Shown here piece after piece: positions 1,684 to 18,044 of a DNA stretch of 20,893 nt. A model generated the notes under the pieces. It had not been told where the DNA came from, did no database searches, and worked only from the letters and a program-made list of their open reading frames with translations. Within the stretch, counting starts at the first letter, position 1, and every line of letters starts with the position of its first letter. The translations under genes were made by a program, and so were the position numbers. Origin of the DNA: Bacteroidales bacterium (GTDB taxonomy: Bacteria > Bacteroidota > Bacteroidia > Bacteroidales > F082); NCBI GenBank assembly GCA_016285355.1, contig JAEEQP010000061.1, positions 1 to 20,893 on the forward strand, in the 5' to 3' direction.

Positions 1684-2427
1684 TCATTCCTGTATCGCAG
1701 TCTCCAAAAGCTTCACAAAGTAGTTTCCCTCGTTATTATACAGCTTGATTTTCATCCAACCGTAACGGAATCTGTCGGCATCCGTAAATCTGAATCCAAT
1801 GTATTTTTCCTCATCTAATGGGAAGCGGTCATAGTCATTCTTATAAACTGTGTGATAATGAGTTTGTTTATAGGGGTCTGCCGAATAAGCTGTATAATTA
1901 CTTTCTGTAGCACGCTTATACAGTGTAACAAATTCTGGAAAAGAGTTCTTGTTTAGTATGAACAAATCACCGTCATCGTACGCTTGCGGAATAGATACAG
2001 TCTCATTATGTTCCACAACGTCAGCTTCATCAATCTTATGGAAAGTATAAATCTGTGTAATGGTAACATGTGTTGTATCCCCTGTTTGCCAATATGTTGT
2101 GTCGCTGTGAAGGTAAAGTTTTTTCTCGACCTCCTTGCATATAATTTTTATTTCGTCATCATTAAGGCAATCGATTGCAGACACAGACAACCCATTAGCA
2201 GACACGCTGGTATAAAGCCGAATGTTATTTTTTCCATCTCCATTCAAATCCACAAGATATGACCATTGGTCGGAGAAATCTGAAGTGTGCAGCATACTTA
2301 CGGTGTCGTATGATGTGACAATCATACCCGTGTAATCGCCAAAAGTGATCCCTGTGCGTTCCTTGTTGCACGACGGCATAACGCAAACCGCCGCCAATGC
2401 CATTGCAAATAATACCAATCTTTTCAT
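1684..2427 (-). CDS. Putative lipoprotein of unknown function (247 aa)
   Basis: The N-terminus MKRLVLFAMALAAVCVMPSC is a lipoprotein signal with lipidation Cys20, so the mature protein is probably anchored in the outer or inner membrane. The rest has no recognised catalytic motif. Near the C-terminus, YIGFRF (about 212-217) followed by YGWMKIKL resembles the GFRF...GW terminal strand pattern seen in other Bacteroidetes secreted or lipidated proteins. It lies in a co-directional run between the two T9SS paralogs. Its signal-peptide and upstream DNA are similar to those of the next upstream lipoprotein, although the mature proteins are unrelated. I do not recognise a named family. Confidence 0.75.
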   Translation of the reverse strand: MKRLVLFAMALAAVCVMPSCNKERTGITFGDYTGMIVTSYDTVSMLHTSDFSDQWSYLVDLNGDGKNNIRLYTSVSANGLSVSAIDCLNDDEIKIICKEVEKKLYLHSDTTYWQTGDTTHVTITQIYTFHKIDEADVVEHNETVSIPQAYDDGDLFILNKNSFPEFVTLYKRATESNYTAYSADPYKQTHYHTVYKNDYDRFPLDEEKYIGFRFTDADRFRYGWMKIKLYNNEGNYFVKLLETAIQE

Positions 2428-2488
2428 AGTTCAATTATTTAATAGTTAATACTTCCTTTTGTCTTTTATCTCCTCCCATCGTAATCCC

Positions 2489-2516
2489 GATAGCACGATA
2501 GCACGAATAACGAAAA
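2489..2516. repeat. TAGCACG-type intergenic repeat, copy 2
   Basis: Two heptamer-like units (GATAGCACGATAGCACG) followed by AATAACGAAAA, between the two lipoprotein genes. Preceded by AATCCC, as in copy 3. Confidence 0.55.
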
Positions 2517-2555
2517 GGCTTCAATAATAATGTCATTCAATTTGTTTTAAACAAT

Positions 2556-3011
2556 TCAATAGTCAAGTTGAATGAGGGCATTCTGATAGTCTTGCTCATC
2601 GATGCTGTAAAGCACTTCGTGTGTGGAACTGCCCATAGTCTTATGTTGCTTCGTGATTTCCCAACACGACTTCAACAAAGTGCTTTTGGCAAAGGAGTCC
2701 TCAACATGATAGGTGACAAACACACTGTCATTAAACCGAATTGTAGCAAAAGCACAAGCCGAAAAGTAAAGATTAACTTCATCGTTATCGAAAGGTGAAG
2801 GCTCTCTGTCCATTCGTTGTTCATAGATGAAAACTTTTTCATTGGGTTGGATAACGGAATCCGTCTGCATCCCGTCAAAAACATATTTTATCGGATTTGA
2901 TGTATTGTTCAAGATGTAATAGTCATCGATGAAATACGGCTCATACACACATGAGTTTAGGCATAAGAGAACGATTGCAACTGCCATTGCAAATAATTCT
3001 TTTCTTTTCAT
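2556..3011 (-). CDS. Putative small lipoprotein of unknown function (151 aa)
   Basis: MKRKELFAMAVAIVLLCLNSC is a lipoprotein signal with lipidation Cys21. The mature part (YYILNNTSNPIKYVFDG..., then IRFNDSVFVTYHVED) looks like a compact beta-rich domain. No enzyme motif is visible. It is 96 bases downstream of the T9SS repeat protein at 3110 and probably transcribed with it, since I see no TAnnTTTG promoter box in the gap. Its 5' end and upstream DNA match those of the neighbouring lipoprotein gene at 1684-2427, while the mature regions do not match. Family not recognised. Confidence 0.75.
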   Translation of the reverse strand: MKRKELFAMAVAIVLLCLNSCVYEPYFIDDYYILNNTSNPIKYVFDGMQTDSVIQPNEKVFIYEQRMDREPSPFDNDEVNLYFSACAFATIRFNDSVFVTYHVEDSFAKSTLLKSCWEITKQHKTMGSSTHEVLYSIDEQDYQNALIQLDY

Positions 3012-3067
3012 AGTTCATTTATTTAATTGGTTAATACTTCCTTGTTATCTCCTTCCTTCATAATCCC

Positions 3068-3107
3068 GATAGCACGTTAGCACGTATAACGATAGCACGA
3101 AAAAAAA
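3068..3107. repeat. TAGCACG-type intergenic repeat, copy 3 (longest)
   Basis: Three TAGCACG units (GATAGCACG, TTAGCACG, GATAGCACG) with TATAACGA between the second and third, ending in an A-run. It starts 2 bases after the stop codon of the gene at 3110-4762. On the minus strand the A-run reads as U-rich, but no stable hairpin is evident. Confidence 0.55.
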
Positions 3108-3109
3108 CA

Positions 3110-4762
3110 CTACCTCACCATCACCTTCTCCAAAAAGATTCTCCCTTCCTTATCCTTAATCCTCACCAAATAAACCCCTTCCGCCAATCCCTCCAAACTC
3201 ACATCATTAGAGTTCTGCACCTTCTTCACCACTTGCCCCCAAGCATTATAAACCCAAACCTCCTCAGCCTCAACACCCTCTATCGTAACTTTGCCATTCG
3301 CTGGATTGGGATAAACAAATATCGCTCTTTCCTCTGGTAGTGGCCGTTCCGGCACCTGCAAGGTGGTGTAATCCACTGTGTCAGTAATATGAAGCACCCA
3401 ATAGTTACTATAAGAGTTCATCAAATAGGCCGTATCGTTTGTGCAGTTATAGTCGCCACAAGGCATTTCGCCTCCCGAACTTCCACACTCTGCAAGAAGC
3501 ATGTATTCTCTATCATTATGCTTAATAACATCTGCAAGATACTCATGAGACTCTGTTTGAGTGCCTATGGCTCTTTCCCAAAGCAGGTTGCCGTTGCTGT
3601 CAGTGCGGAAAACCCACAACTTGTTTCCAATTTCGAGATTCCAAGCGGGCTTAAGGTTATTTGCACTTTGGGAGTCGCCATCCAATGACATGGTGGTTCC
3701 AAAAACGGTAAAGCCTCCATCCTCATTCAGGAAGACTTTGACAATCTGTTCGTCTTTCGTGCCGCCATAGCACTTGCTCCATAATACATTGCCATCCAAA
3801 TCCGTACGCAGCAGCCAAATGTCGGAAGTCAAAGGCATCCAAGATTGACCATACCAATGCCCGGGATGATACCCTGCGCCTTGAAGATCACCGCCCGATG
3901 ACGAAGAATGCCCTCCAAACAAATAACCGTCAGGTAGCTCTATCACATTGGAAAATGAATCATGCTTGTCCCCTCCATTGCAACGATTCCATTCCACCTC
4001 GCCATTGGCATTCATCTTGACGAGTATTCCATCAGCATATCCTCCAGGTCGGGCACAACTCTCTATATTACCATTCCCCGATTGGTTAGCCGCATCTCCA
4101 AAAACATATAAACCGCCATCTTCAGCAATAGCAACTCTGTCATCCATTTCATCTCCACTTGTTCCTAAAGTCGTTTCCCATTCCAATTCACCATTTTTGT
4201 CTAATTTTACGACCCAAAAATCTGTACTGCCAAAAAATTGACTGGCATCTCCACATGCCCAAAAACCTTTGCCCGTGGTACAAACAATGCCGCCGTCATC
4301 GGTGACAACTCCATGAACGCTGTATGGGAAATAGTGTTCCTCGCAGCCCAAAGTGCGTTCCCAAATGATATTGAGATTATCATCCGTTCTAACAGCCAAA
4401 ATTCCTGAATTTCCAGTTGAAGGGAAAACCTTCTTCCCATAAAAATAGTATCCGTCCATGTCCTTTGCTTTCAAGATGCCATGATAGCCTTGGAAACAGT
4501 CTTGATTGACGATTTCATGATTCTCGTCAATTTCTATGACCCAAGCCCCTGTTGAGCCTTGGTCACCGCAAGCAATCATGCCGCTCCCTAAATCAGAGAC
4601 TCCCAAAATGATGTAGCCATCATCTTTAGGTAGAAATTTGGCTGGTTCATCAATTCCTAATCCTCCATAACATTGTTGCCAATCAATGCGAAGCTGGGCT
4701 TGCAAATTACTTCCAGCTATCATCAGGAGCGCCAGCAGGGCGAAAATTTTTACGTGTTTCAT
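3110..4762 (-). CDS. T9SS type A sorted repeat protein, paralog B (550 aa)
   Basis: Start ATG at 4760-4762 with a signal peptide (MKHVKIFALLALLMIAGSNLQAQ). The body has repeats of the form W-x-x-x-x-GG-x-x-x-D...DGG/DGY...G, for example at residues 28-53, 194-221, 257-284, 328-355 and 395-420. These match the propeller-like repeat proteins common in Bacteroidetes. A proline-rich linker (VPERPLPEER, about 470-479) leads to a T9SS type A domain: YPNPANG at 484-490, a GQVVKK strand, LAEGVYLVRI and terminal KVMVR. The protein should cross the outer membrane by T9SS and be attached to or released from the surface. A close paralog starts at 1522; the C-terminal halves are far more similar than the N-terminal halves. 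The ligand or role is not apparent. Confidence 0.9.
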   Translation of the reverse strand: MKHVKIFALLALLMIAGSNLQAQLRIDWQQCYGGLGIDEPAKFLPKDDGYIILGVSDLGSGMIACGDQGSTGAWVIEIDENHEIVNQDCFQGYHGILKAKDMDGYYFYGKKVFPSTGNSGILAVRTDDNLNIIWERTLGCEEHYFPYSVHGVVTDDGGIVCTTGKGFWACGDASQFFGSTDFWVVKLDKNGELEWETTLGTSGDEMDDRVAIAEDGGLYVFGDAANQSGNGNIESCARPGGYADGILVKMNANGEVEWNRCNGGDKHDSFSNVIELPDGYLFGGHSSSSGGDLQGAGYHPGHWYGQSWMPLTSDIWLLRTDLDGNVLWSKCYGGTKDEQIVKVFLNEDGGFTVFGTTMSLDGDSQSANNLKPAWNLEIGNKLWVFRTDSNGNLLWERAIGTQTESHEYLADVIKHNDREYMLLAECGSSGGEMPCGDYNCTNDTAYLMNSYSNYWVLHITDTVDYTTLQVPERPLPEERAIFVYPNPANGKVTIEGVEAEEVWVYNAWGQVVKKVQNSNDVSLEGLAEGVYLVRIKDKEGRIFLEKVMVR

Positions 4763-4930: not shown

Positions 4931-5283
4931 CTTGTCAAACCCAGTCGGAAATCGGGTCTTTTCCGAGGGTTTTTCCGAGGTTGGAGCGGTATTTTCCCAC
5001 CGTGTTTTCGCTCAATCCGAGCAAATCGGCCTCCTCCTTGATGCGGAAGTGGAGGAAACTCAAAAGGAGGATATGCCGCTCCGTTTCGTTCAATTCGGGG
5101 TGCTCCGACTTCAGTCTTGCCACAATCTGCGGATAAGTGTCGTCAACGGCTTCGAGGATGCGCTGCAACCTGTTCTTGTTATTGGATTGATAGATGTCCG
5201 CGACGCGCTGCTGCAATATCTCCCTTGTGTGTTGTGCGGCCTGTTCCACCTTGGTTTGCAGTTCGCGTTGCTCTTCATCGTGC

Positions 5284-5340
5284 CGCTGCGATGCCTCGGT
5301 TAAGCGCTGCGATGCCTCGGTTAAGCGCTGCGACGCCTCG
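5284..5340 (-). repeat. 21-bp tandem repeat encoding coiled-coil heptads
   Basis: About 2.7 copies of CGCTGCGATGCCTCGGTTAAG, the third with one substitution. Each unit encodes exactly one 7-residue heptad (EASQRLT) in the regulator's coiled coil, so slippage would change its length by whole heptads without changing frame. Confidence 0.8.
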
Positions 5341-5828
5341 ACTTCTTGCGCTGCCATGCGTTTTTTGCTTCTGCGCCGCATCAGAATGACCACCACAGCC
5401 GCCAGCACCACCACCATAGGCAACACCACAGCGAGTGCCGTCCTCACCGCCTTTCTCCGTTCACGGAGCGAAACCGCCTCTTGTTTCTCCTGCAGGTAGT
5501 TCTGGAACAGGTCGTTTAGTTTCGCGACTTGCGCCTGGTTTTCAACTGCTGCGTCCACATCTTCTATGATGAATTGGACATATTGGTTGGCTTTCAGTGT
5601 ATCGCCTTCGCAAAGGGCAATGTCATGCAAAGTCTTTGTTGCATATTTTTGATCAGTGTCATCATTTGTAAAATCAAAGTGTCCACTCCATCCGTCATTA
5701 CCAACAACGAATCGAAATACTCCACGGCCTGCAACAATTCCGTGCGGTTGGTTTGGGCGTAATCGTTCTTGAACAGCAATTCCGAGGCCAGCAATTGGGC
5801 GTAATGATTATCATACGTTTCGTTTGTA

Positions 5829-5849
5829 GAGACGCATTGAATGCGTCTC
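5829..5849. repeat. GAGACGC palindrome (REP-like), copy 1
   Basis: Perfect 10-bp inverted repeat GAGACGCATT / AATGCGTCTC around one base, preceded by GTA. Same type as the element at 18078-18099. It lies at the 5' end of the decayed regulator and encodes the out-of-place RRIQCVS residues there. Confidence 0.75.
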
Positions 5850-5934
5850 ATTGTGTCCATTGCATCATTTTTAGTCAAAATCCATCAAACTCAATTAAAA
5901 ATCTCTCCCCGCAAGATGAAAACCTCTTCAAGGA

Positions 5935-5985
5935 TAGAAATTCAGCCAAAATGCGAAAAAATTCGTGATTTTGGCTGAATTTCTA
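5935..5985. repeat. Long perfect hairpin upstream of the ATPase gene (left bracket)
   Basis: 18-bp perfect inverted repeat TAGAAATTCAGCCAAAAT (5935-5952) / ATTTTGGCTGAATTTCTA (5968-5985). The 15-base centre itself holds CGAA-AAAA-TTCG. The right arm extended by one base (5967-5985) is repeated exactly at 7523-7541, after the ATPase gene. Confidence 0.9.
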
Positions 5986-6006
5986 AGCTATATAAAAAGA
6001 TTTATT

Positions 6007-6014
6007 TATCTTTG
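6007..6014 (+). promoter_or_regulatory. Candidate -7 box (TATCTTTG) of the ATPase gene
   Basis: Exact TAnnTTTG match 21 bases upstream of the ATG at 6036. It lies just outside the left hairpin, which would place the hairpin upstream of the transcription start. The -33 region is not convincing. Confidence 0.5.
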
Positions 6015-6035
6015 CAGCAATAAATTAGCATCAAA

Positions 6036-7496
6036 ATGAACCCATCCACAGTTATCGGAAGAGAAGAAGAACTCGACACCATCTCAAGGCTTTACGAATC
6101 AGAGCGTTCTGAGTTCTTGGCCATATACGGTCGGCGTCGTGTCGGCAAATCGTTTCTCATAGAGGAAGCCTTTGGGGAAAAGATTTCTTTCATGGCCGTC
6201 GGCATTTACCAAAAGATTGACAAGGACAATCCTGAGAAGGTGGAGTCGTACAGACAGAAACAACTGGCGCACTTTTACAACAGCCTTCAGGAATATGGAC
6301 TTCCAAAAGAAGGGAATCCGGCTCCCACCAGTTGGATGGAGGCTTTGGGGCTTCTGAAAAAGTTGCTGCAGCGGAAGCGTGCCCCACGCAAAGTCATATT
6401 TATCGACGAATTACCTTGGTTGGCGGGCCCCCAGTCGTCAGAACTATTGGAAGAGCTTGGACACTTTTGGAATTCATGGGCAAGAAAGCGCAAGGACATC
6501 TTCCTCATCGTATGTGGCTCGGCCACCAGCTGGATGGTTGACAATGTCATGCGCGATTATGGTGGCCTGTATGGAAGAATAACCGAGTCCATATTCCTCA
6601 AACCTTTCACCCTCGAAGAATGCGAAAGATACTGGATCAAACGAGGCTTCCATTTGTCAAGGTATGAAATTGCCCTCACTTACATGGTCATCGGGGGAGT
6701 GCCTTATTATATGGATAGCATCCGACCCGACAGGACAATGGCCGACAACATCAACGCCACCTATTTCGACAAGGACAAAGCCCGCCAAGAGTTCAAGGAT
6801 GTTTACACAGGGCTTTATTCAAGCTCTGAAATCTATATTGATGTCATCCGTCAGCTTGGCAAGAGATTCTATGGAATGACGCGGACAGAACTTCTCAAAG
6901 CGGTTGACAAAAAGGGAGGCGGAACCTTCACTGACATTCTTGAAAATCTGATGGATTCAGGCATCATCAGGAGTTATACCCTTTATGGAGGTTCGAGGAA
7001 GCAGACGGTTTATCAGCTTATCGATTTTTTCACCCTGTTTTACCTACGCTTTGTCGAAAATTCCGACTTCACTTCTTGGCGTTCTGTACAGCGGAGCAAG
7101 CCTTTCTATACTTGGGCAGGCAACACCTTCGAATTATTGGTCATTGAACACATGCCCCAACTTGCCAATGCACTCAGAATCAAGGAATATGCTACTCCTT
7201 TCAGTTGGAGAGGTACCACACCAGCCGATGAAGGTGTACAAGTAGACCTCATCATCCCTGCAACCGCTGAACGAGCCGACTATATCTGCGAAATGAAGTT
7301 CTCGGAAGGCAAATACACCCTATCTAACGAAGATGTTGAGGAGATTACAAGGCAAATATCTGCTGTAAGAAATTCCAAAATCCACAAGCCGAGCCATTCG
7401 ATTTATGTTGCTCTTGTAACATCGTTCGGAGTGACTGAATCAAAGCATAAAATCCATGTAAATGATATAGTTACACTTGATTCGCTATTCGGATAA
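6036..7496 (+). CDS. AAA+ ATPase of the archaeal-ATPase/DUF234 type with PD-(D/E)XK-like C-terminus
   Basis: 486 residues. IGREEEL (7-13) is the family's N-terminal box. Walker A is GRRRVGKS (32-39), Walker B VIFIDE (120-125), followed by a sensor-like VCGSATSWM (159-167) and YGRITESIFLKPF. A winged-helix-like middle segment follows (about 270-345). The C-terminal part has D404, E419 and K421 in the D...ExK arrangement (VDLI...CEMKF) of restriction-like nucleases, as described for DUF234 domains. No frameshift or missing motif is evident. The gene stands alone, flanked by a dead regulator and a recN remnant, and both ends carry hairpins with the same sequence. The cellular role of these ATPases is not established; a mobile or selfish unit is my inference. 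The ATG follows a -7 box by about 20 bases. Confidence 0.9.
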   Translation: MNPSTVIGREEELDTISRLYESERSEFLAIYGRRRVGKSFLIEEAFGEKISFMAVGIYQKIDKDNPEKVESYRQKQLAHFYNSLQEYGLPKEGNPAPTSWMEALGLLKKLLQRKRAPRKVIFIDELPWLAGPQSSELLEELGHFWNSWARKRKDIFLIVCGSATSWMVDNVMRDYGGLYGRITESIFLKPFTLEECERYWIKRGFHLSRYEIALTYMVIGGVPYYMDSIRPDRTMADNINATYFDKDKARQEFKDVYTGLYSSSEIYIDVIRQLGKRFYGMTRTELLKAVDKKGGGTFTDILENLMDSGIIRSYTLYGGSRKQTVYQLIDFFTLFYLRFVENSDFTSWRSVQRSKPFYTWAGNTFELLVIEHMPQLANALRIKEYATPFSWRGTTPADEGVQVDLIIPATAERADYICEMKFSEGKYTLSNEDVEEITRQISAVRNSKIHKPSHSIYVALVTSFGVTESKHKIHVNDIVTLDSLFG

Positions 7497-7499
7497 TTT

Positions 7500-7541
7500 A
7501 GCCAAAATCAACATTTTTTATCGATTTTGGCTGAATTTCTA
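7500..7541. repeat. Hairpin immediately after the ATPase stop (right bracket)
   Basis: AGCCAAAATC (7500-7509) pairs with GATTTTGGCT (7523-7532) and the right side continues as GAATTTCTA. Bases 7523-7541 are identical to 5967-5985 (19 bp). It begins 4 bases after the TAA. It could act as a terminator but lacks a U-run. Confidence 0.85.
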
Positions 7542-7652
7542 TTGGCTGTCATCACTTAACTCTTGATTTACTTTTCGCTTCCATATTGCCTGAAACAACC
7601 TTCCAAACGAAGTTCCAAAAGACTGGTTTTTGGGTGTTTATCGAAGTGCTAT

Positions 7653-7979
7653 TCACCTTTGCAACAGCACTTCCGCCGCTCGTAATGCCTCTGGCGTTAT
7701 GCGGTCATTACTGAGCATCTTGGCGATTTCGGTGATACGTTCATCGGCATTCAACACGCGAATGTGCGATTGCGTGCGTTCGCCTTCGTTGTCCTTGTAG
7801 ATGAAGTAATGGTGCTCGGCTTGGCTGGCCACTTGGGGCAGGTGGGTGATGGAGATGAGTTGCAACGCATTGCCCATCTGCCGCATGATGCCTCCGATTT
7901 TGGCCGCCACTTCGCCCGAAACGCCCGTGTCGATTTCGTCGAAGATGAGGGTGGGGATGTAGTTCCAAGATCGGCATTA
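7653..7979 (-). pseudogene. recN: Truncated second copy of the recN 3' end
   Basis: In-frame remnant covering RecN from NYIPTLIFDEID (Walker B) through the THLPQVAS loop to the C-terminus. It has no ATPase N-terminus. The in-frame TAA at 7977-7979 closes it and no start exists except an internal GTG at 7910. Bases 7758-7964 match 9487-9693 in intact recN at 206 of 207 positions (the difference is 7926/9655). The last ~35 residues differ: VLNADERITEIAKMLSNDRI against LLDSKERIQEIAKMLSNDQV. Similarity to recN stops abruptly at 7964/7965. The product would not be functional. Confidence 0.9.
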
Positions 7980-8028
7980 TGAAGAATGCTGTTGGGAAAG
8001 AGGAATAACCTTTTGGTTTACATAATAA

Positions 8029-8058
8029 AAAACCGCTGTCAAGTTGGGCAGCGGTTTT
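8029..8058 (-). terminator. Rho-independent terminator of the serpin gene
   Basis: Perfect 10-bp stem AAAACCGCTG / CAGCGGTTTT with a 10-base loop, 20 bases past the serpin stop. On the minus strand the stem ends in a run of six T. Confidence 0.85.
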
Positions 8059-8078
8059 CTGTTTTGTCGTTGTTTGGA

Positions 8079-9302
8079 TTATTTTCCTGTGTATTTTCCG
8101 ATGAAGAAAATGGCCCCTGTTGATTGCTCGCTGATTACATAGAGAAAGCTACGATCGGCGTGAAACACGGCGTAGGGCAGCTCTGGCTCTTCTCCAACAG
8201 AAGTGGTGGTCATGCCTGTTACCGTAACTGCAGCAGCCTCAGTGCCTTTTTCATCCAATTTTATTTTGGCCACTTGTTTCATGAGTTCGATATAAGTGGG
8301 AACGTTGCAAAACTCGTCGAATTGGGCTTGGTTGGGGGCAAAAGCAGTCGGCATACCAAGTCTTGACATGATTTCCACCAAATTCAAGTTGGTGTTGGTC
8401 TCGAAACGGGGAAGTTTTACGTCGACGATGTGGGTGTACATCTGATGGAGGTTATCATTCCAGCTTTGTCCGTACAATTGGCTAAGGATGTCATCTGTGG
8501 TCTTGCCTTCGTGTGGCAGCATGACGGCCATGCAATAGGCACCGTTGCCGTAGGGCAGGTTGAGTGATTGGTAGGTGTCGTTGTCAGCATAGGAGAGTTC
8601 ACATTCCTGATGCATCATCGGCACCTTGTCGCCATTGTTGAAGGGCTCATCCTTGGTCTCGTTCTTTTTGAATTTCATGCTCCATTCACCTTTGAAATAG
8701 ATGGCATTGAGCAGATAACTCACCGCCTCGGGATCGAATTCGTTTTCCTCAAGGGCTTTCTTGATCATTTGTTCGGTGTGGTCGCTGGCCCATTGGTTGA
8801 TGACATCGAGTGTACGGCCGTCTTTGAAGTCGCGCGATTCGGGCTTGGCATCGTAATAGGTGTTGGCTTTTTCCACGAAAGGAGGTTTCAGCTCGTAGCC
8901 TTGGCCACTGTTGACAAAGATGGTGTTGGCAATCATCACCTTGGTCATTTTATCGAGGGAAGGTGCCTCGGTAAGCATCTTTTTGCAGAAGTCATTGATG
9001 GCATCCGCTCCAGTGTCGCCAAAACCAAGTACGGTATTGATTTCCTGTTGGGTTTGGCCGACAGCTCCGTTGTTGAGCATTCCCAACGAGTAGGTGATGC
9101 TCAGTGGCGAAATGATTTGGCTCCCCTCGTTTTGTGCAGTGCGGAAAAGGTTGAAGGCGAAGTCGTTGTTGTCGCTGACCAACTGTCTCTCGGTATTGGT
9201 CAATTGGATGTCAGCTCTTGGGTTGTCGTTAGCTTTGGGCTCTTTTTTGCAGCTTACTAATACCATCATGACAGCGATGGCAATCAAAATAATCTTTTTC
9301 AT
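8079..9302 (-). CDS. Serpin-family lipoprotein (protease inhibitor)
   Basis: 407 residues from the ATG at 9300-9302; an upstream in-frame ATG at 9326 would put 8 residues before the signal. MKKIILIAIAVMMVLVSC is a lipoprotein signal with lipidation Cys18, so the inhibitor is likely on the cell surface. Full-length serpin fold: the hinge EKGTEAAAVT (351-360), a Gly/Thr-rich reactive loop, then the C-terminal signature FHADRSFLYVI...GAIFFIGKY. By alignment to alpha-1-antitrypsin the scissile bond would be Thr367-Ser368. The small-residue hinge predicts an inhibitory serpin. Lipidated serpins are known in Bacteroidetes (miropin of Tannerella forsythia), so host proteases or the cell's own secreted proteases are plausible targets. 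The gene lies between direct repeats of recN sequence, suggesting later arrival. Confidence 0.92.
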   Translation of the reverse strand: MKKIILIAIAVMMVLVSCKKEPKANDNPRADIQLTNTERQLVSDNNDFAFNLFRTAQNEGSQIISPLSITYSLGMLNNGAVGQTQQEINTVLGFGDTGADAINDFCKKMLTEAPSLDKMTKVMIANTIFVNSGQGYELKPPFVEKANTYYDAKPESRDFKDGRTLDVINQWASDHTEQMIKKALEENEFDPEAVSYLLNAIYFKGEWSMKFKKNETKDEPFNNGDKVPMMHQECELSYADNDTYQSLNLPYGNGAYCMAVMLPHEGKTTDDILSQLYGQSWNDNLHQMYTHIVDVKLPRFETNTNLNLVEIMSRLGMPTAFAPNQAQFDEFCNVPTYIELMKQVAKIKLDEKGTEAAAVTVTGMTTTSVGEEPELPYAVFHADRSFLYVISEQSTGAIFFIGKYTGK

Positions 9303-9384
9303 TGGATGGGTGTTTTGATGATACAATATCGATATTCGCTATTTTAACAGCAAAACAGGAAAAATATTGTATGAAACGGAATTA

Positions 9385-11037
9385 TTATTTTAAAAGTACT
9401 TCAGCAGCCTTTATCGCTTCAGGCGTGACTTGGTCATTGCTGAGCATCTTAGCGATTTCCTGGATGCGCTCCTTGGAATCCAACAGGCGAATGTGCGATT
9501 GCGTGCGTTCGCCTTCGTTGTCCTTGTAGATGAAGTAATGGTGCTCGGCTTGGCTGGCCACTTGGGGCAGGTGGGTGATGGAGATGAGTTGCAACGCATT
9601 GCCCATCTGCCGCATGATGCCTCCGATTTTGGCCGCCACTTCGCCCGAAACGCCTGTGTCGATTTCGTCGAAGATGAGGGTGGGGATGTAGTTGTAGCTC
9701 GAAACGGCGCTCTTGATGGAGAGCATCAATCTTGATAACTCGCCGCCCGAGGCCACACGACGGATGTCGTCGGGGTCAATGCCTTTGTTGGCGGAGAAGA
9801 GGAAACGGATTTCATCACTGCCTTTGCTACCAAAGCTTTCCTGACGCTCCACGCTGACTTGGAACTGTGCAAACGGCATGGCCAACTGCCGTACCAATAC
9901 CATGACTTTCTCGCCAAAAGCCACTGCGGCTTGGCAACGTTTGTCGTGTAGGGCTTTGGCAAGGCTGGATAGTTGTTTCTCGCTGGCTTTCAGCTCCTTT
10001 TCGGCTTGGGCAATGGCCTCGTCGATGTTCTCGAAGGCATTCACTTTTTCCTTCAGGCTGTCGCGCAAGGCGATGAGCTCTTCAAAACTGCCGACGCGGT
10101 GCTTCATCATCAGGCGGCTGAGCAGGTCGTAGCGTTCTTGAAGGCTTTGCAGCTGCCCTTCGTCGAATTGGGTCTCGTCTTCCTTGCGGCGTAGGTCGTA
10201 GGCGATGTCTTTCAGCTCCACTTTCAGGTTCTCGATGCGGTCTTGCAGGTTTTCCGTGTCAGGCAAGAGGTGTTTCAGACGCGAAAGGGCAGAAGACAAC
10301 GCATTGACTTGCCCCAAAATGGCATTCTCCGAGTCATCCAGCAGACCATTGGCGGTAACGAGCAAGGTCTTGATTTCCTCGGCATTCTCCATCACGCTGA
10401 GGGTCTGCTCGATGTCAGCATATTCGTCTTCTTTCAAATCGGCCTTGTCGAGTTCGTCCAACTGGAATTTCAGGTAGTCGTTTTCGGCGGTGTTTTTGGT
10501 CGCCATCTCTTTCAGCTCGTTCAACTTCCGCTTGAGGGTGTTGTAGTGGCCGTATTCCGTTTGGTAATCAGCAAGATGGTTGCTGTTTTGAGCGATTTCG
10601 TCCAAGAGTTTCAACTGAAAATCGGCATCTGTGAGCAGGAGGGAGTCGTGTTGTGAGTGGATGTCAACCAATTGGCTTCCGATTTCTTTCATCGTCTGCA
10701 AAGCCACAGGCGTATCGTTGATGAAGGCACGGCTTTTCTTCTGCGGGTTGAGTTCGCGGCGGAAAATGCACTCGGTCTCAAAATCAAGGTCGTTTGTCTC
10801 AAATAAGGGTCTCAGGTTCTCGTCATTGAGCGCAAACTGGGCTTCCACCACACATTTCTTGTCCTTGTCGTAAAGCACGTTGGTGTCGGCACGGTCGCCC
10901 AAGGCAAAACCCAAGGCACCAAGCAAGATGGACTTGCCCGCGCCTGTTTCGCCTGTAATGACATTGAAACCTGACTCAAAACTGACACTCAGTTCGTCAA
11001 TCAAGGCATAATTACTGATGTGCAGTTGTTTGAGCAT
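9385..11037 (-). CDS. recN: DNA repair ATPase RecN
   Basis: 550 residues, normal length for RecN, an SMC-like protein that helps repair double-strand breaks. Walker A GETGAGKS (29-36), a long central coiled-coil region (about 155-370), ABC signature SGGELSR (430-436), Walker B LIFDEID (454-460), and THLPQVA (488-494) with the switch His489. ATG start with MLKQLHISNYALIDE, the usual RecN N-terminus. It lies 14 bases after DUF4835, as in many Bacteroidetes. The last ~35 residues differ from those in the remnant at 7653, and sequence from Walker B into the linker is almost identical to the remnant. This suggests that recN's 3' end was exchanged by recombination. The protein looks intact and functional. 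Confidence 0.95.
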   Translation of the reverse strand: MLKQLHISNYALIDELSVSFESGFNVITGETGAGKSILLGALGFALGDRADTNVLYDKDKKCVVEAQFALNDENLRPLFETNDLDFETECIFRRELNPQKKSRAFINDTPVALQTMKEIGSQLVDIHSQHDSLLLTDADFQLKLLDEIAQNSNHLADYQTEYGHYNTLKRKLNELKEMATKNTAENDYLKFQLDELDKADLKEDEYADIEQTLSVMENAEEIKTLLVTANGLLDDSENAILGQVNALSSALSRLKHLLPDTENLQDRIENLKVELKDIAYDLRRKEDETQFDEGQLQSLQERYDLLSRLMMKHRVGSFEELIALRDSLKEKVNAFENIDEAIAQAEKELKASEKQLSSLAKALHDKRCQAAVAFGEKVMVLVRQLAMPFAQFQVSVERQESFGSKGSDEIRFLFSANKGIDPDDIRRVASGGELSRLMLSIKSAVSSYNYIPTLIFDEIDTGVSGEVAAKIGGIMRQMGNALQLISITHLPQVASQAEHHYFIYKDNEGERTQSHIRLLDSKERIQEIAKMLSNDQVTPEAIKAAEVLLK

Positions 11038-13188: not shown

Positions 13189-15495
13189 TTATTTTTCAAT
13201 GACGAGTTTTTCGACGTGACTACCGCTTTCGTTCCAAAGATGCAGTAAGTAGATTCCTTGCGTCAGGCCGCTGGCTTCGATTTGCGTTTTGCCCTCGGTT
13301 TTGCCTGAAAGCACGCACTGACCGAGTGCATCGTAAAGCGCATAATCCGCCCTGCTGTTGGATTCAATGGTAAAGCTGTTTTTGCAAGGGTTAGGATAGA
13401 TTTTTGCGGTTGCTGAATCCTTTTCATCTATTGCCTCTCCACCGATACAGGTCACCGTGGCTACCCAGCCGAAAAAGTTGATGTACATGTCGGAACTGAA
13501 GGTGAAAGTCAAGGCACCTAAGGGATTGGTTGCGATAATGCTGTCAGGGAGTTCCGAGCCTGAAAAACTGCCGATGAGTGGGCAGTTTATGCTGGCACCG
13601 TCATAGACAGAAAGTACATCGGCATTAGGTTGGGTTTTGAACTTGAGGAAATTGATGCTGATTTTTTGGTCGCTGTTTTCCGGACGCAAGGTCAGCTTGT
13701 AGTTTTCATTGCCTTTGTAATGTCCGCAGTCGCCACCGGAGGGGAGAAATAGCCCTCGACAATCAGTAAGTGTCATGTCGCCGTTGTGGATGGGGATGGC
13801 GTGATACACATCCATCAACTCGTTTTTGGTGATGGTATGGGTTTGTCCATTAGCATCGGTGACGGTGAGTTTGACATCGAACAATCCTGGTGTTTCGTAA
13901 ACCACGATGGGATTGCGCTCAGTGGAGGTGGCAGGGGTGCCGCCTTCAAACTGCCATTCCCAATTCACAATGCGCAAGCCTTTGCTGAGGTCGTTAAACC
14001 TGACAGGTAACCCTACCGTGACCAATTCCCTCTCGGTGTCAAAATCGGCCAACAGAGGTGTGTCGGCGATGGGTGAGAGTTGTACATTTTGCGTCACGGC
14101 TTGGTTGTCGCTAATGGTAATGGTAAATGTCTGTGGTTCATAACCGTAAGCGGAATAGGTTACATTGTAGGTGCCGCCTTTGATGGGACGGTGGTAGTCG
14201 CCCGCGGGCAAATGTGAACTGACTTCCGAGCCGTGATGGTCATGTCCCACAATGCTCACTGTGGCCTCAATGGGTGCTCCGGTTTCGGCGTCGGTGATGG
14301 TGCCGTGTATACCGTTGAGACACTGCTCCATATAGCTTAACAAACTGTTGTGGTTGAAGTTCCAATACATGGGCATCTGTGTGGCATTCGGTGTGTAGAC
14401 GCGGGAAAGCTCGATGGTGACCTCACGGCATTGCTGGTAGTAGTTCATATAGTCTTGGCGGCCTCCGCTAATCATGTACCAGTTGCAACCGCGTACGATG
14501 CCATCGTTGAAGTAGGTCATGTAGGTCGAGTCAGTGGCATAGCAGGCTTCATGAACAAGGTCGGCGTATTCGCGGCTGACCATCTCCCACCAAGCGTCGT
14601 CGGCAGAAGGCTGGGTGAGGTTGTCCCAAGGGTAGTTCACCACTTCGGAACCGGTGTGAAAATTGGCGGCCATGGTGAACTTGTAGTCTTGCGCAAGATT
14701 CATAAGCCATTGGGTTTCATCCTGATAACACCAGTCACCATCAGGATGTGGACCAGCAACGAAGTCGGGATAATGGCGGTTGAGTTCCACATCATTGGCA
14801 TTGTTGCGACGCGCACCATAAACGGTGCTGTTGCTGCTGTAGTAAGTACCGTCAGGGTTGGTGTTGGGACAGATGAAAATGTCCAAGTTGTTGACCAAGT
14901 TCAAGATACGTTCGTCATCGCTGGTGCAAAGCTCGTCAATGAGATGGAGCATCAGCATATAGCCTGTGGTCTCGTCGCCGTGCATAGTTGAGGTGTAGAG
15001 GAAACGCGGCTTGCCTTCGGGATGTCCATCGTTGATGCGGCAAAACATGAGTTTTCGGCCACTGTCCAAGGTGCCGAGCTCAAAATAGGTACAGCGTTCG
15101 GGATGTTCGGCGGCAAATTGCTGCATCATGCTTTCGTAGGCTTCGTAGGTCGGATAGGCATCCCAGTCGTATGCCTCGCGGTAGCTGCCATCCCACATGA
15201 TGGGCGTTTCGAGCATCGAAGGTGGAGTTTGCAGCTTGGGCTGATAACCTTTCGAAAGCAAAATCTCGTACTGGTTCTGGTTGGCGTAGCAGATCACGGT
15301 CTTTCCGTCTGTGTTGGCCACGGAGCAAATATCACTGATAGTCTGAATTTCATTGGGTTGGTCGACCGTGAGGGTGAAGAAATACTCTCCACGGCTTCGC
15401 ATGAGTTGCTCCAAATCCTTTTGGCTGTTTTGGGCCAATAGGCTACCGCAAACTGTCATGGCAAGGATGACCAGGAAACGCTGCAAATACCTCAT
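13189..15495 (-). CDS. Secreted M14 zinc carboxypeptidase with PKD, CUB-like and T9SS domains (768 aa)
   Basis: Signal peptide to about residue 22 (MRYLQRFLVILAMTVCGSLLAQ). The M14 domain spans about 105-395: zinc ligands H172 and E175 (MHGDE) and H280 (ANFHTG), substrate motif NTNPDGT, and catalytic Glu362 in REVTIELS. Then come a carboxypeptidase regulatory-like domain (GIHGTITDAETG, 396 to ~475), a PKD domain (about 483-560, WEWQFEGG), a CUB-like domain (about 575-683) and a T9SS type A domain (YPNP at 700-703, ending VEKLVIEK). It should remove C-terminal residues from peptides outside the cell, like P. gingivalis CPG70. It lies 8 bases after a paralog and is probably in one operon with it. 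Confidence 0.93.
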   Translation of the reverse strand: MRYLQRFLVILAMTVCGSLLAQNSQKDLEQLMRSRGEYFFTLTVDQPNEIQTISDICSVANTDGKTVICYANQNQYEILLSKGYQPKLQTPPSMLETPIMWDGSYREAYDWDAYPTYEAYESMMQQFAAEHPERCTYFELGTLDSGRKLMFCRINDGHPEGKPRFLYTSTMHGDETTGYMLMLHLIDELCTSDDERILNLVNNLDIFICPNTNPDGTYYSSNSTVYGARRNNANDVELNRHYPDFVAGPHPDGDWCYQDETQWLMNLAQDYKFTMAANFHTGSEVVNYPWDNLTQPSADDAWWEMVSREYADLVHEACYATDSTYMTYFNDGIVRGCNWYMISGGRQDYMNYYQQCREVTIELSRVYTPNATQMPMYWNFNHNSLLSYMEQCLNGIHGTITDAETGAPIEATVSIVGHDHHGSEVSSHLPAGDYHRPIKGGTYNVTYSAYGYEPQTFTITISDNQAVTQNVQLSPIADTPLLADFDTERELVTVGLPVRFNDLSKGLRIVNWEWQFEGGTPATSTERNPIVVYETPGLFDVKLTVTDANGQTHTITKNELMDVYHAIPIHNGDMTLTDCRGLFLPSGGDCGHYKGNENYKLTLRPENSDQKISINFLKFKTQPNADVLSVYDGASINCPLIGSFSGSELPDSIIATNPLGALTFTFSSDMYINFFGWVATVTCIGGEAIDEKDSATAKIYPNPCKNSFTIESNSRADYALYDALGQCVLSGKTEGKTQIEASGLTQGIYLLHLWNESGSHVEKLVIEK

Positions 15496-15503
15496 TTTGA
15501 GCC

Positions 15504-18044
15504 TTATTCAATGATGATTTTTTCAACCTTGCTTCCACTTTCGCCAATGATATGGAGGAAATAGATGCCTTTTCCCTGTTGGGTTTGGATCAGGATGGGA
15601 CCTCCGTCCTTTTGGCCTGCAATGATGCGTTGGCCTACGCTATTATAAAGTTCGAAATGGACAGGTTCAGTCACTTTGACGGTGAAACTGCCATGGCTGG
15701 GATTGGGGTAAATATGGATATTATTCATCTGGTTTTCAGAAGCATTGCAATCGGGGATGACATTTACCTCGATGGTGGCACTTATGGTATTGCCATCGGT
15801 GTCGGTTATGGTCGCAGTGTAGAGTTGGTTGCTTGACAACGAGACGGTATTCGTGAATGGGTCATCTGGATGGTCCACCATGTCGGCGGGTTCCCAACGG
15901 TAAGTGTAGTTGCCAGAGCCGCCAAAGGCATACATGCTGAGCAGTGTAGTGTGTCCTTCAATGATGGTACTTGGATCGGCAAAGACCTCAATCTCAAGCG
16001 CATTGCTTGTCCCAAGGCAATGTATCAGGGCTTTCCATCCAGGGGCATTCACACCATAGTCGGAGGAGAAGCGGAAGGTCAAAGCTCCGTCTGAATTGGT
16101 GGCGGTCACCGTGCCGGGACTGTCGGTTCCTGAGAACTCTCCAAGCGAGGGGGCAGAGGTGGAAGTGCCATCATAGATGTAAAGAAAATCATAGCCGTCT
16201 TCTAAGGAGAATTCTTCAAAAACAGCCTCGATGATGCCATCCGACGACTCAGGCAGGAAGGTCATCGTGTAGTTTTTCCTGTCGCTGTAGTTGCCGTTCG
16301 GGCCGCCGTTGTCGTAGAACAAGGCGTTGCAAGTGGTGACCGTACCGTTTTGCATGTTGTACATCTCGCTCACATTGATATAGTTATGCTTGACGATGGT
16401 CTCGGCTTGGCCGTCGCTGTTGGTCACGGTAAGGGTGACATCGTAGTGGCCGATGGTATTATAGGAAATGCCAGTCGGATTCTGCGCATTGGAAGTGGCC
16501 GGTTCGCCGCCTTCGAAAGTCCATTCCCAACTGACGAGGTTGGCACCCCAGGTGTTGTCAGTGAAGTTGACGCTGCTGCCAAGGGCAACATCAGTGGTGT
16601 TGGCGTTGAAATCAGGGATGATGCCTTCGCCTGCTTCAAGTTGAACGTCTTGGATGACCGTTTCGCCGTCAGATATCGTGATGGTGAAAGTCTGCGGATA
16701 GTAGCCGCTGCAAGCGTATGTCACATCGTAAGTGCCGCCTTTGATGGGACGGTGGTAGTCACCGGCAGGCAGATGGCTCTCTACGATGGAGTATTGGTCA
16801 TCATGGTTGGCAATGGTGATGGTGGCATTGAGAGCTTGTCCGTTGGCAGCATCGGTTACGGTGCCGTGGATGCCATAAATGCACTGGTACATAAAAGCAA
16901 AGATGGAATTCTTGTTGTAGTTCCAGAAATTGGGCAACTGGTTGCCATTGGGCATTTTCGAGTTGGAGCATTCTATGGTCAGCTCGCGGCATTGGGCATA
17001 ACCGTTCATGTAGTCTTGGCGACCGCCGCCAATCATGTACCATTGGGCACCGTTGGTGATGCCGTTGTTGTAGTCGGTCATGTAGTTCGAGTTCACCTCA
17101 TGCGTGAGGTCGGCGTATTCGTGGCTGATGAGTTGATACCAGGCATCGTCGGCATGGAGCGTGTAGGTGTTGTCCCAAGGATAGTTCATCACTTCGGCAC
17201 CACCGTGATAGTTGGCACCCATGACAAAGGCGTTCTCTTCGGCAAATTGCATAAACCATTCGGTTTCAGTTGCGTATGGGTTTCCGTCAGGGTGAGGGTT
17301 GCCGTGGGGGTCAGCATAGTTGCGGTTCATGTCCACGCCATTGGCGTTTTCGCGGGTGGCACCGTATACCGTATTGTTGCCGCCGTGATAAGTGCCGTCA
17401 GGGTTGGTGTTGGGTCCGATGTAAAGGTCGATGTTGTTCATCACGGTCTGCACCTCAGGCTCATTCGGGTTCTCAAGCAAATAATCGATGAGGCGGAGCA
17501 TGAGGATCCAGCCGGTGGTCTCGTCGCCGTGGATGGTACTGGTGTAGAGGAACTTGGGCTTACCGTCGCGTGCGCCATTGTGGAGGTGGGCAATCATGAT
17601 TTTGCGGCCGGAAGGCAAGGTGCCAAGGGTGATGATTTCGCACTTGTCGGGATGGTTGGTTTGGAATTCAAACATCATGTCCTCGTAGGCCGAATAAGTC
17701 GGGTAGCTGTCCCAATCGTATTCGGCGCGGTTGTTGCCGTCCCACATGGCGACTTCCTCTATCATCGAGGGAGGTGTCTGAAGCGTCACCTCATAGCCAA
17801 GTTGTTGGAATTTGGCAAATTCCTGGTTGTTGGCGTAAGCCGTGACCACATTGCCGTCAACACGGTCGACTGAAATGGTGTGGGCGATGGCGTTCAGGTC
17901 GTCATTGCCGTTCAGGTTGAAAGTGAAATAATACTCGTTGCGCTCTTGCATGAGTTGTTTCAGTTCTTGCTGGCTCTTTTGGGCAAAAACGCTGCCGCAA
18001 ACGATGATAGCGAGTATCAGGATAAAATAGCGTAATGTTTTCAT
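15504..18044 (-). CDS. Secreted M14 zinc carboxypeptidase with extra Ig-like domain and T9SS domain (846 aa)
   Basis: Signal peptide MKTLRYFILILAIIVCGSVFAQ. M14 residues sit at the same positions as in the paralog: H172, E175 (IHGDE), H280 (ANYHGG), NTNPDGT, and Glu358 in RELTIECS (Cys replaces the usual Leu after the Glu). The order is then regulatory-like domain (GIHGTVTDAANG, 391 to ~470), PKD domain (about 478-558), CUB-like domain (about 570-677), an additional Ig/PKD-like domain absent from the paralog (about 683-765, AFGGSGNYTYRWEP), and T9SS type A domain (YPNP at 779-782, ending VEKIIIE). It is probably a surface or secreted peptidase. The tandem arrangement with the 768-residue copy indicates duplication followed by domain gain or loss. 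Confidence 0.93.
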   Translation of the reverse strand: MKTLRYFILILAIIVCGSVFAQKSQQELKQLMQERNEYYFTFNLNGNDDLNAIAHTISVDRVDGNVVTAYANNQEFAKFQQLGYEVTLQTPPSMIEEVAMWDGNNRAEYDWDSYPTYSAYEDMMFEFQTNHPDKCEIITLGTLPSGRKIMIAHLHNGARDGKPKFLYTSTIHGDETTGWILMLRLIDYLLENPNEPEVQTVMNNIDLYIGPNTNPDGTYHGGNNTVYGATRENANGVDMNRNYADPHGNPHPDGNPYATETEWFMQFAEENAFVMGANYHGGAEVMNYPWDNTYTLHADDAWYQLISHEYADLTHEVNSNYMTDYNNGITNGAQWYMIGGGRQDYMNGYAQCRELTIECSNSKMPNGNQLPNFWNYNKNSIFAFMYQCIYGIHGTVTDAANGQALNATITIANHDDQYSIVESHLPAGDYHRPIKGGTYDVTYACSGYYPQTFTITISDGETVIQDVQLEAGEGIIPDFNANTTDVALGSSVNFTDNTWGANLVSWEWTFEGGEPATSNAQNPTGISYNTIGHYDVTLTVTNSDGQAETIVKHNYINVSEMYNMQNGTVTTCNALFYDNGGPNGNYSDRKNYTMTFLPESSDGIIEAVFEEFSLEDGYDFLYIYDGTSTSAPSLGEFSGTDSPGTVTATNSDGALTFRFSSDYGVNAPGWKALIHCLGTSNALEIEVFADPSTIIEGHTTLLSMYAFGGSGNYTYRWEPADMVDHPDDPFTNTVSLSSNQLYTATITDTDGNTISATIEVNVIPDCNASENQMNNIHIYPNPSHGSFTVKVTEPVHFELYNSVGQRIIAGQKDGGPILIQTQQGKGIYFLHIIGESGSKVEKIIIE

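What the first reader, a model, noticed from the sequence alone, without database searches (positions are those of the whole stretch)
7653..9693. Serpin gene inside a recN 3'-end duplication: Campbell-type integration that swapped the RecN tail
Seen: 207-bp direct repeats with one mismatch (7758-7964 and 9487-9693, offset 1729) flank the serpin gene. Distal to the repeats the two recN tails diverge at many codons, while similarity ends sharply at 7964/7965. A plain tandem duplication would give two equally similar tails. A DNA circle carrying serpin, a recN fragment and its own recN 3' end, entering by one crossover, would give exactly this order: intact recN with a new tail, cargo, then a headless fragment with the resident tail. 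This would be a way to insert cargo next to a core gene without breaking it.
Basis: partly seen in the sequence, partly recalled or inferred. Interest (0 to 1): 0.75.

Follow-up and report, generated by a model that had tools for sequence, protein, structure and literature searches.

The report
Serpin cassette that swapped recN's tail
In an uncultured Bacteroidales bacterium a protease-inhibitor gene seems to have arrived from a related species on DNA that recombined with the end of the repair gene recN, leaving recN whole with a new tail and the old tail as a leftover piece behind the newcomer.

Summary
In detail: 7758-7964 and 9487-9693 agree at 206 of 207 bases, the tails beyond at 66 of 93, and similarity stops at 7964/7965. 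New fact: 7961-8008 (+) is the last 15 codons and stop of lpxA, cut at the joint. In 22 of 53 related loci lpxA lies downstream of recN, convergent; in 7 of these a serpin sits between. In five of the seven the serpin genes are 95.8-99.9% identical but recN bodies only 77.9-84.7%: this serpin crosses species by recombination in its flanks. The window's intact recN has the tail length of most recN-lpxA loci (18 of 22), the fragment that of loci without lpxA behind recN (11 of 11). An intact recN with exactly the fragment's tail exists (P0041). A Campbell circle is possible but not needed: one homologous end in recN plus one illegitimate end (lpxA to recN, 4-bp AGTT) is simpler. The layout probably recurs: an intact recN and a 77-aa fragment are listed with the same longest contig, 177,271 bp.

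The parts
9385..11037 (-). intact recN (550 aa), resident body with a foreign tail (inferred)
   Evidence: Pfam SMC_N; body 87.0% nt to L001, which has the highest mean identity of 36 loci compared; short tail class
9487..9693 (-). 207-bp repeat copy inside the intact recN
   Evidence: 206/207 to 7758-7964; L001 is nearest of 48 loci, 198/207, L014 next with 197
9385..9486 (-). tail A: short, recN-lpxA-type end of recN that came with the serpin (inferred)
   Evidence: 66/93 to tail B; L001 only 7th of 48; 34-residue tail class found in 18 of 22 recN-lpxA loci and 0 of 11 loci of the other type
8079..9326 (-). serpin, probable surface lipoprotein (lipobox VLVSC read by eye)
   Evidence: PF00079 1.3e-88; best solved relatives 5ncs (named Serpin) and the miropin chains 5nct and 5ncw; 87.6-89.7% nt to the serpins of six relatives with a full-length copy, 80.7% to the partial one in L029
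8030..8057 (.). inverted repeat AAACCGCTG...CAGCGGTTT, terminator-like, between serpin and lpxA remnant; also present in relatives
   Evidence: read; same sequence in L006, L008, L009, L047 and variants in L002, L021, L029
7961..8008 (+). 3' remnant of lpxA: 15 codons and stop (SSKIGIMKNAVGKEE*), truncated at the joint
   Evidence: alignment with L006, L008, L009, L047; ORF of L006 ends ESSKIGIMKNAVGNEE (the name lpxA is by eye); matches to other genomes start at 7961-7964, mostly 7961
7961..7964 (.). AGTT, 4-bp microhomology at the illegitimate joint
   Evidence: near recN matches end at 7964 and lpxA-side matches mostly start at 7961 (query 312 and 309); sequences
7758..7964 (-). 207-bp repeat copy in the headless recN fragment
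   Evidence: L001 nearest of 48, 199/207
7653..7757 (-). tail B: displaced resident recN tail, 35-residue class
   Evidence: L001 nearest of 48 (81/93); exact match to the tail of intact P0041; tail class

Best explanation
The serpin came in on a piece of chromosomal DNA from a related Bacteroidales species in which the order is recN, serpin, lpxA. The resident recN was followed by other genes, with no lpxA next to it. One end of the incoming piece paired with the resident recN and crossed over near its 3' end, so that recN stayed whole but took the donor's last ~33 codons. The other end lay in lpxA and had no homologous partner at that place. It was joined without homology, at the 4 bp AGTT, to a second copy of the resident recN 207 bp upstream of the crossover, most simply the sister chromosome. 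The product is body, 207, donor tail, serpin, lpxA end, 207 again, resident tail. This is homology-facilitated illegitimate recombination with duplication. Shown: the repeat, the two tail classes, the lpxA remnant, the 4-bp overlap, the sharing of the serpin block between species, and an intact gene bearing the displaced tail. Inferred: linear DNA, the sister chromosome, and the route by which DNA entered the cell. The donor species is not identified.
For: lpxA remnant at the joint. No listed match crosses the joint in the 93 of 173 family genomes that match at all (3 candidate places scored per genome): the nearer recN hits end at query 312 and lpxA-side hits start at 309-312, mostly 309. Chance of 4 or more shared bases at a random joint, equal base frequencies, is 0.016. 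lpxA behind recN in 22 of 53 loci, serpin between them in 7. Serpin 95.8-99.9% identical among L002, L006, L008, L009, L047 with recN bodies at 77.9-84.7%; the shared block begins 57-137 nt before the recN stop, and for L006, L008, L009 ends 15-39 nt inside lpxA. Tail classes. L001 rank 1 of 48 for both 207 copies and for tail B, 7th for tail A. P0041. The tail-A ending needs 13 changes on the recN body tree, at least 8 forced by well-supported branches, and three pairs have identical bodies but different tail classes. recN P0008 and the 77-aa fragment P0125 both have longest contig 177,271.
Against: No DNA of a second case was seen: of 79 matching genomes in the genus (99 searched, 7 candidate places scored each) only G041 has two recN 3' ends, on two contigs. 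The serpin-bearing species with known DNA do not carry tail A: at the 27 sites where the tails differ they match A at 10-11 and B at 7-10, so the donor is not sampled. L001 itself is mixed at those sites (B 17, A 9, other 1), and L014 is almost as close in the 207-bp stretch. On the tree the tail-A label is still more clustered than shuffled labels (13 changes against a mean of 23.2), so part of its spread is by descent. What follows tail B in the window (7543-7652, then an ATPase element) is not what follows recN in L001. A circle or a two-step tandem duplication gives the same final order.
Confidence: 0.62

Rival explanations
1. Campbell-type integration: a 1729-bp circle (207, tail A, serpin, lpxA end, closed at AGTT) formed in a serpin-bearing strain and entered recN by one crossover.
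For: Gives the same order. A serpin-bearing donor with a nearly identical 207-bp stretch and another tail is possible: L004/L042 against L048/L011 show 200-205/207 with tails of 62-63/93, and some recN proteins share identical bodies with different tails.
Against: Needs an unobserved circle. It predicts that at every differing site one copy is donor, yet the copies agree at 206/207 and both are nearest to L001. The serpin shared by five relatives sits between recN and lpxA flanks with no second recN piece.
Confidence: 0.2
2. This genome did not suffer the first event; it received the finished unit (tail A, serpin, lpxA end, recN fragment) from another strain by two ordinary crossovers, both inside recN.
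For: The tail-A ending sits on many recN bodies and changes place at least 8 times on the tree. 77-aa recN fragments in the protein database carry different tails (P0121, P0123, P0125, P0128), as expected if each recipient kept its own tail. P0008 and P0125 share longest contig 177,271.
Against: The DNA around those fragments could not be read; 76-77-aa pieces probably also arise at contig ends (for example P0138 on a 617-bp contig).
Confidence: 0.35
3. Tandem duplication of the 1729-bp unit inside a recN-serpin-lpxA genome, after which the second tail and everything beyond was replaced by DNA of the other type.
For: Same joint, same 4-bp overlap; tail and neighbour exchanges do occur (L004/L042 against L011/L048).
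Against: Two events instead of one; body, both 207 copies and tail B all point to the same L001-like parent.
Confidence: 0.08
4. Assembly join of two strains.
For: No own genome and no reads were available; the window is probably a metagenome contig (inference).
Against: The joint has only 4 bp of overlap, far below any assembly word. A recN with tail A and a 77-aa fragment are listed with the same 177,271-bp longest contig, another contig than this 20,893-bp one.
Confidence: 0.04

Closest known systems
Homology-facilitated illegitimate recombination (PMC3240628, start of abstract in a listing; mechanism passages in PMC5361080)
   Same: One end of the incoming DNA joined by homology, the other by illegitimate recombination; an old part is shifted downstream of the newcomer, as proposed for Vibrio T6SS effector and immunity genes
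   Different: Natural, in a housekeeping gene of uncultured Bacteroidales, with a 207-bp duplication of the target and a remnant of the donor's next gene at the joint
Minimal mobile element (definition in a passage of PMC3082526)
   Same: Whole-gene cassettes between two conserved genes (recN and lpxA in the relatives), incorporated by homologous recombination
   Different: In the window only one flank is in place, and the new unit has recN sequence on both sides
Prophage e14 in icd of E. coli (icdA, e14, icdC; passages in PMC4759930)
   Same: Target gene kept whole with a supplied 3' end, displaced original 3' end behind the insert
   Different: e14 is attributed to site-specific recombination at 11-bp repeats; here the insert is 1.5 kb with one recognised gene and no recombinase, and the repeat is 207 bp
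Merodiploids made by transformation in pneumococcus (PMC3784515, passages)
   Same: Incoming DNA bridges sister chromosomes and leaves a duplication
   Different: There the bridge is a repeated sequence present in donor and host; here it is a 4-bp joint

Membership tests
Minimal mobile element between recN and lpxA (relatives) | Two conserved genes with different whole-gene cassettes or none between them | tested here: met
   recN-lpxA empty (for example L005, 12 bp), serpin (7 of 53 loci), serpin plus a further 337-aa ORF (L002), another 588-aa ORF (L026)
Minimal mobile element between recN and lpxA (relatives) | Spread by homologous recombination in the flanking genes | tested here: met
   Serpin 95.8-99.9% identical in L002, L006, L008, L009, L047, recN bodies 77.9-84.7%; block borders inside recN in each pair compared, and inside lpxA for L006, L008, L009; L047 is identical to L006 up to its contig end, and in L002 the block stops in the last ~60 bp of the serpin
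Minimal mobile element between recN and lpxA (window) | Both conserved flanks in place | tested here: not met
   lpxA is reduced to its last 15 codons and stop (7961-8008)
Homology-facilitated illegitimate recombination product | One joint in homologous sequence | tested here: met
   Switch from L001-like to foreign within recN at about 9486/9487
Homology-facilitated illegitimate recombination product | Other joint without homology beyond a few bases | tested here: met
   4-bp AGTT; matches in other genomes break there
Homology-facilitated illegitimate recombination product | Donor DNA was linear | not testable with these tools
   Final order is the same for a circle
Campbell-type integration | Circular donor form | not testable with these tools
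   No reads available
Integrase-driven element in a gene's 3' end (e14-like) | Recombinase gene in the insert | tested here: not met
   In 7965-9486 the serpin is the only gene recognised; the other ORFs of 80 aa or more lie antisense within it (not scanned with Pfam)
Serpin superfamily | Serpin profile over the full length | tested here: met
   PF00079 positions 2-367 of 370, 1.3e-88; PDB chain 5ncs at 9.4e-61
Serpin superfamily | Protease inhibition | not testable with these tools
   Hinge GTEAAAVT looks inhibitory by eye only (recalled rule)

The most novel reading that the evidence does not exclude
The unit tail A - serpin - lpxA remnant - headless recN has become an integrase-free module that protects its target. 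It carries recN sequence at both ends, so any strain with a recN can take it up by two ordinary crossovers inside recN, keeping recN whole and pushing its own old tail behind the cargo. It is spreading in this way through a group of Bacteroidales, which is why fragments with different tails exist and why tail A sits on many recN bodies.
Probability: 0.33. Interest if true: 0.62.

Novelty: new variant of a known kind. Interest (0 to 1): 0.47.

Why it matters
It looks like a natural footprint of one-ended foreign DNA capture in Bacteroidales, with the donor's neighbouring gene still attached, and shows how a single cargo gene can settle beside a core gene with no recombinase and no damage. It also turns the recN end into a marker: tail length and sequence hint at which neighbourhood and cargo a strain has. 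If the unit spreads on its own recN arms, accident would have produced a simple mobile module.

Tried and rejected
Own genome: none held. Plain tandem duplication: rejected, tails differ and lpxA intervenes. Site-specific element: no recombinase recognised in the insert. A serpin search of viral contigs found nothing. A genus-wide protein search for further serpins did not complete, so serpins elsewhere in these genomes were not counted. The DNA scan of 99 genomes (3 candidate places scored per genome) shows close serpin DNA at recN in seven genomes (G002-G007, G030), one 71% stretch elsewhere (G096), and matches of about 50 bp at the serpin's start or upstream of it in G053, G054, G073 and G094. 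Using contig lengths of serpin clusters to tie serpin to tail A failed, because clusters of up to 136 members hide contigs. The 76-77-aa recN pieces as such are not proof of headless copies, since contig ends can give the same; only P0125 with P0008 is used, and by equal contig length. P0041 shows tail B on an intact recN, but whether its genome lacks the serpin is unknown. Exact tail A on P0061 (body 461/516) is likewise without context. Five distant loci (L049-L053) were left out of the counts; the tail-class count uses 33 of the 48 near loci, those whose neighbourhood could be called. The tail-class p-value (7e-6) ignores kinship. The protein search scored 8000 candidates and lists 120 of 7968; statements on recN tails rest on those 120 (72 of them in the tree).
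Full report
What is there. Copies 7758-7964 and 9487-9693 match at 206 of 207 bases; the only mismatch is at 7926. Beyond 7757 the copies agree at 66 of 93 positions. Beyond 7964 there is no similarity. The right copy is the end of an intact recN of 550 aa. The left copy is a headless recN 3' end. The serpin lies between them. In the insert between the copies (7965-9486) the serpin is the only gene recognised; other ORFs of 80 aa or more lie antisense within it and were not scanned.

The missing clue. Positions 7961-8008 on the + strand read SSKIGIMKNAVGKEE*. This is the end of the gene that in L006 ends ESSKIGIMKNAVGNEE*, which I read as lpxA by eye. A scan for recN in one genome per species gave 53 loci; 48 are near relatives (L001-L048), nearly all titled Bacteroidales or Bacteroidia and many from rumen or gut. 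Of the 53, 22 have lpxA convergent and downstream of recN, starting within about 3 kb, and 7 of these have a serpin between (6 full length, L029 partial). In 11 others recN lacks lpxA behind it. Eight of these 11 have a C10 protease directly behind recN; in the six whose further neighbours I listed (L001, L004, L007, L013, L015, L017) a zinc-ribbon gene, a DUF4159-like gene, an rsmE-like gene or argS follow, in part (names by eye). In these 11 genomes the lpxA end lies on another contig, or in L001 about 33 kb from recN. In a scan of 173 genomes of the family, 93 have any match and none of the listed matches crosses the joint: the nearer recN matches end at query 312 (7964), lpxA-side matches begin at 309-312, mostly 309 (7961), which leaves a 4-bp overlap, AGTT. 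At a random joint 4 or more shared bases have probability 0.016.

The block is mobile between species. The serpin genes of L002, L006, L008, L009 and L047 are 95.8-99.9% identical, while their recN bodies are 77.9-84.7% identical. Pairwise comparison shows that the near-identity begins 57-137 nt before the recN stop. It ends 15-39 nt inside lpxA for L006, L008 and L009. L047 is identical to L006 up to its contig end, and in L002 it ends in the last ~60 bp of the serpin, before a further insert. So recN's tail, the serpin and, in most of these, the lpxA end travel together by recombination in the flanking genes. A second exchange is seen in four close genomes: L004 and L042 against L011 and L048 have recN bodies 93-99% identical in windows from nt 100 to 1450, 200-205/207 in the same stretch, tails at only 62-63/93, and different neighbours.

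Which tail is foreign. L001, without serpin at recN and without close serpin DNA in its genome, is the nearest of 48 loci for both 207-bp copies (198 and 199) and for the fragment's tail (81/93), but 7th for the intact gene's tail (73/93). At the 27 sites where the tails differ L001 is mixed: 17 like the fragment, 9 like the intact copy, 1 other. The known serpin-bearing species do not carry tail A at these sites (A 10-11, B 7-10), so the donor is not sampled. Tail length is cleaner: 18 of 22 recN-lpxA loci have the short tail, 0 of 11 of the other type (kinship not corrected). The window's intact recN has the short tail and the fragment the long one. Its genomic context could not be read.

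Recurrence. Of the 120 listed recN relatives, 33 end in QVTPEAIKAAEVLLK, as tail A does. On a tree of 72 recN bodies this ending needs 13 changes, at least 8 forced by well-supported branches; it is still clustered (shuffled mean 23.2). Three pairs have identical bodies with different tail classes. Headless-looking 77-aa pieces with the same start exist as P0121 (window), P0123, P0125 and P0128, with different tails. Some such pieces probably come from contig ends. But P0125 and the full recN P0008 are both listed with longest contig 177,271 bp, so both very probably lie on one contig. This speaks against an assembly artefact. P0125 has two changes inside motifs kept in 119 and 118 of 120 intact proteins, as expected of a decaying leftover.

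Mechanism. A recN-serpin-lpxA piece from a relative needs two homologous flanks in place. In a genome where lpxA is not behind recN only one is available. Homologous exchange at recN plus illegitimate joining of the lpxA end to recN 207 bp upstream on a sister chromosome gives the observed order in one event. This is the mechanism reported as homology-facilitated illegitimate recombination (start of the abstract of PMC3240628 in a listing; passages in PMC5361080, which propose it for displaced T6SS effector genes). The e14 prophage in icd gives the same architecture by site-specific recombination (passages in PMC4759930). The exchange of cassettes between two conserved genes is the minimal mobile element (definition seen in a passage of PMC3082526). 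Small variable segments flanked by direct repeats are common in other bacteria (passages in PMC2884548). A search for papers with both serpin and recN gave 18; the titles and abstract starts of the 10 listed do not concern this locus. Three terms on bacterial serpins, transfer and Bacteroid- gave 6 papers, seen as a listing only.

Verdict. The case is a new variant of known kinds. The boldest reading left open is that the finished unit now spreads by itself on its two recN arms.

Noticed in passing
5934-7542: ATPase gene (PF01637, 486 aa) between two strong hairpins AGAAATTCAGCCAAAAT...ATTTTGGCTGAATTTCT (DNA fold z -9.0 and -5.7). Homologous stretches of 79-84% nt with the same sharp ends occur in at least 10 genomes of the genus. 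Of these, 8 were looked at: they show about four kinds of flank, all unlike the window's, and the arm sequence varies in the same way at both ends of an element (L090, L097). Looks like a single-gene mobile element without a known transposase.
   Followed up: partly
L004, L042 against L011, L048 (recN at 8001): Close genomes that differ in recN tail and in everything downstream (C10 protease neighbourhood against lpxA): a second recN tail and neighbour swap.
   Followed up: partly
recN downstream in L001, L004, L013, L014, L018, L019, L025, L042 (and about 0.5 kb off in L031): The place behind recN holds a C10 cysteine protease in one set of species and a serpin in another.
   Followed up: no
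1-300 and 3250-3549; 1684-4762: Tandem secreted-protein genes with a shared 3' module; parts of the left end are 92-94% identical to G087, G070 and G090 although the recN 3' piece is 85-87% identical there, so this stretch may also have been transferred.
   Followed up: no
4935-5878: Two overlapping minus-strand frames, one weakly DUF6377-like (below Pfam's cut-off); may be one frameshifted regulator gene.
   Followed up: no
L002, 1483-2496 after the recN stop: 337-aa ORF with a zinc-ribbon start typical of transposases (by eye) inserted between serpin and lpxA.
   Followed up: no
13189-18044: Two tandem M14 carboxypeptidases with PKD and sorting domains.
   Followed up: no
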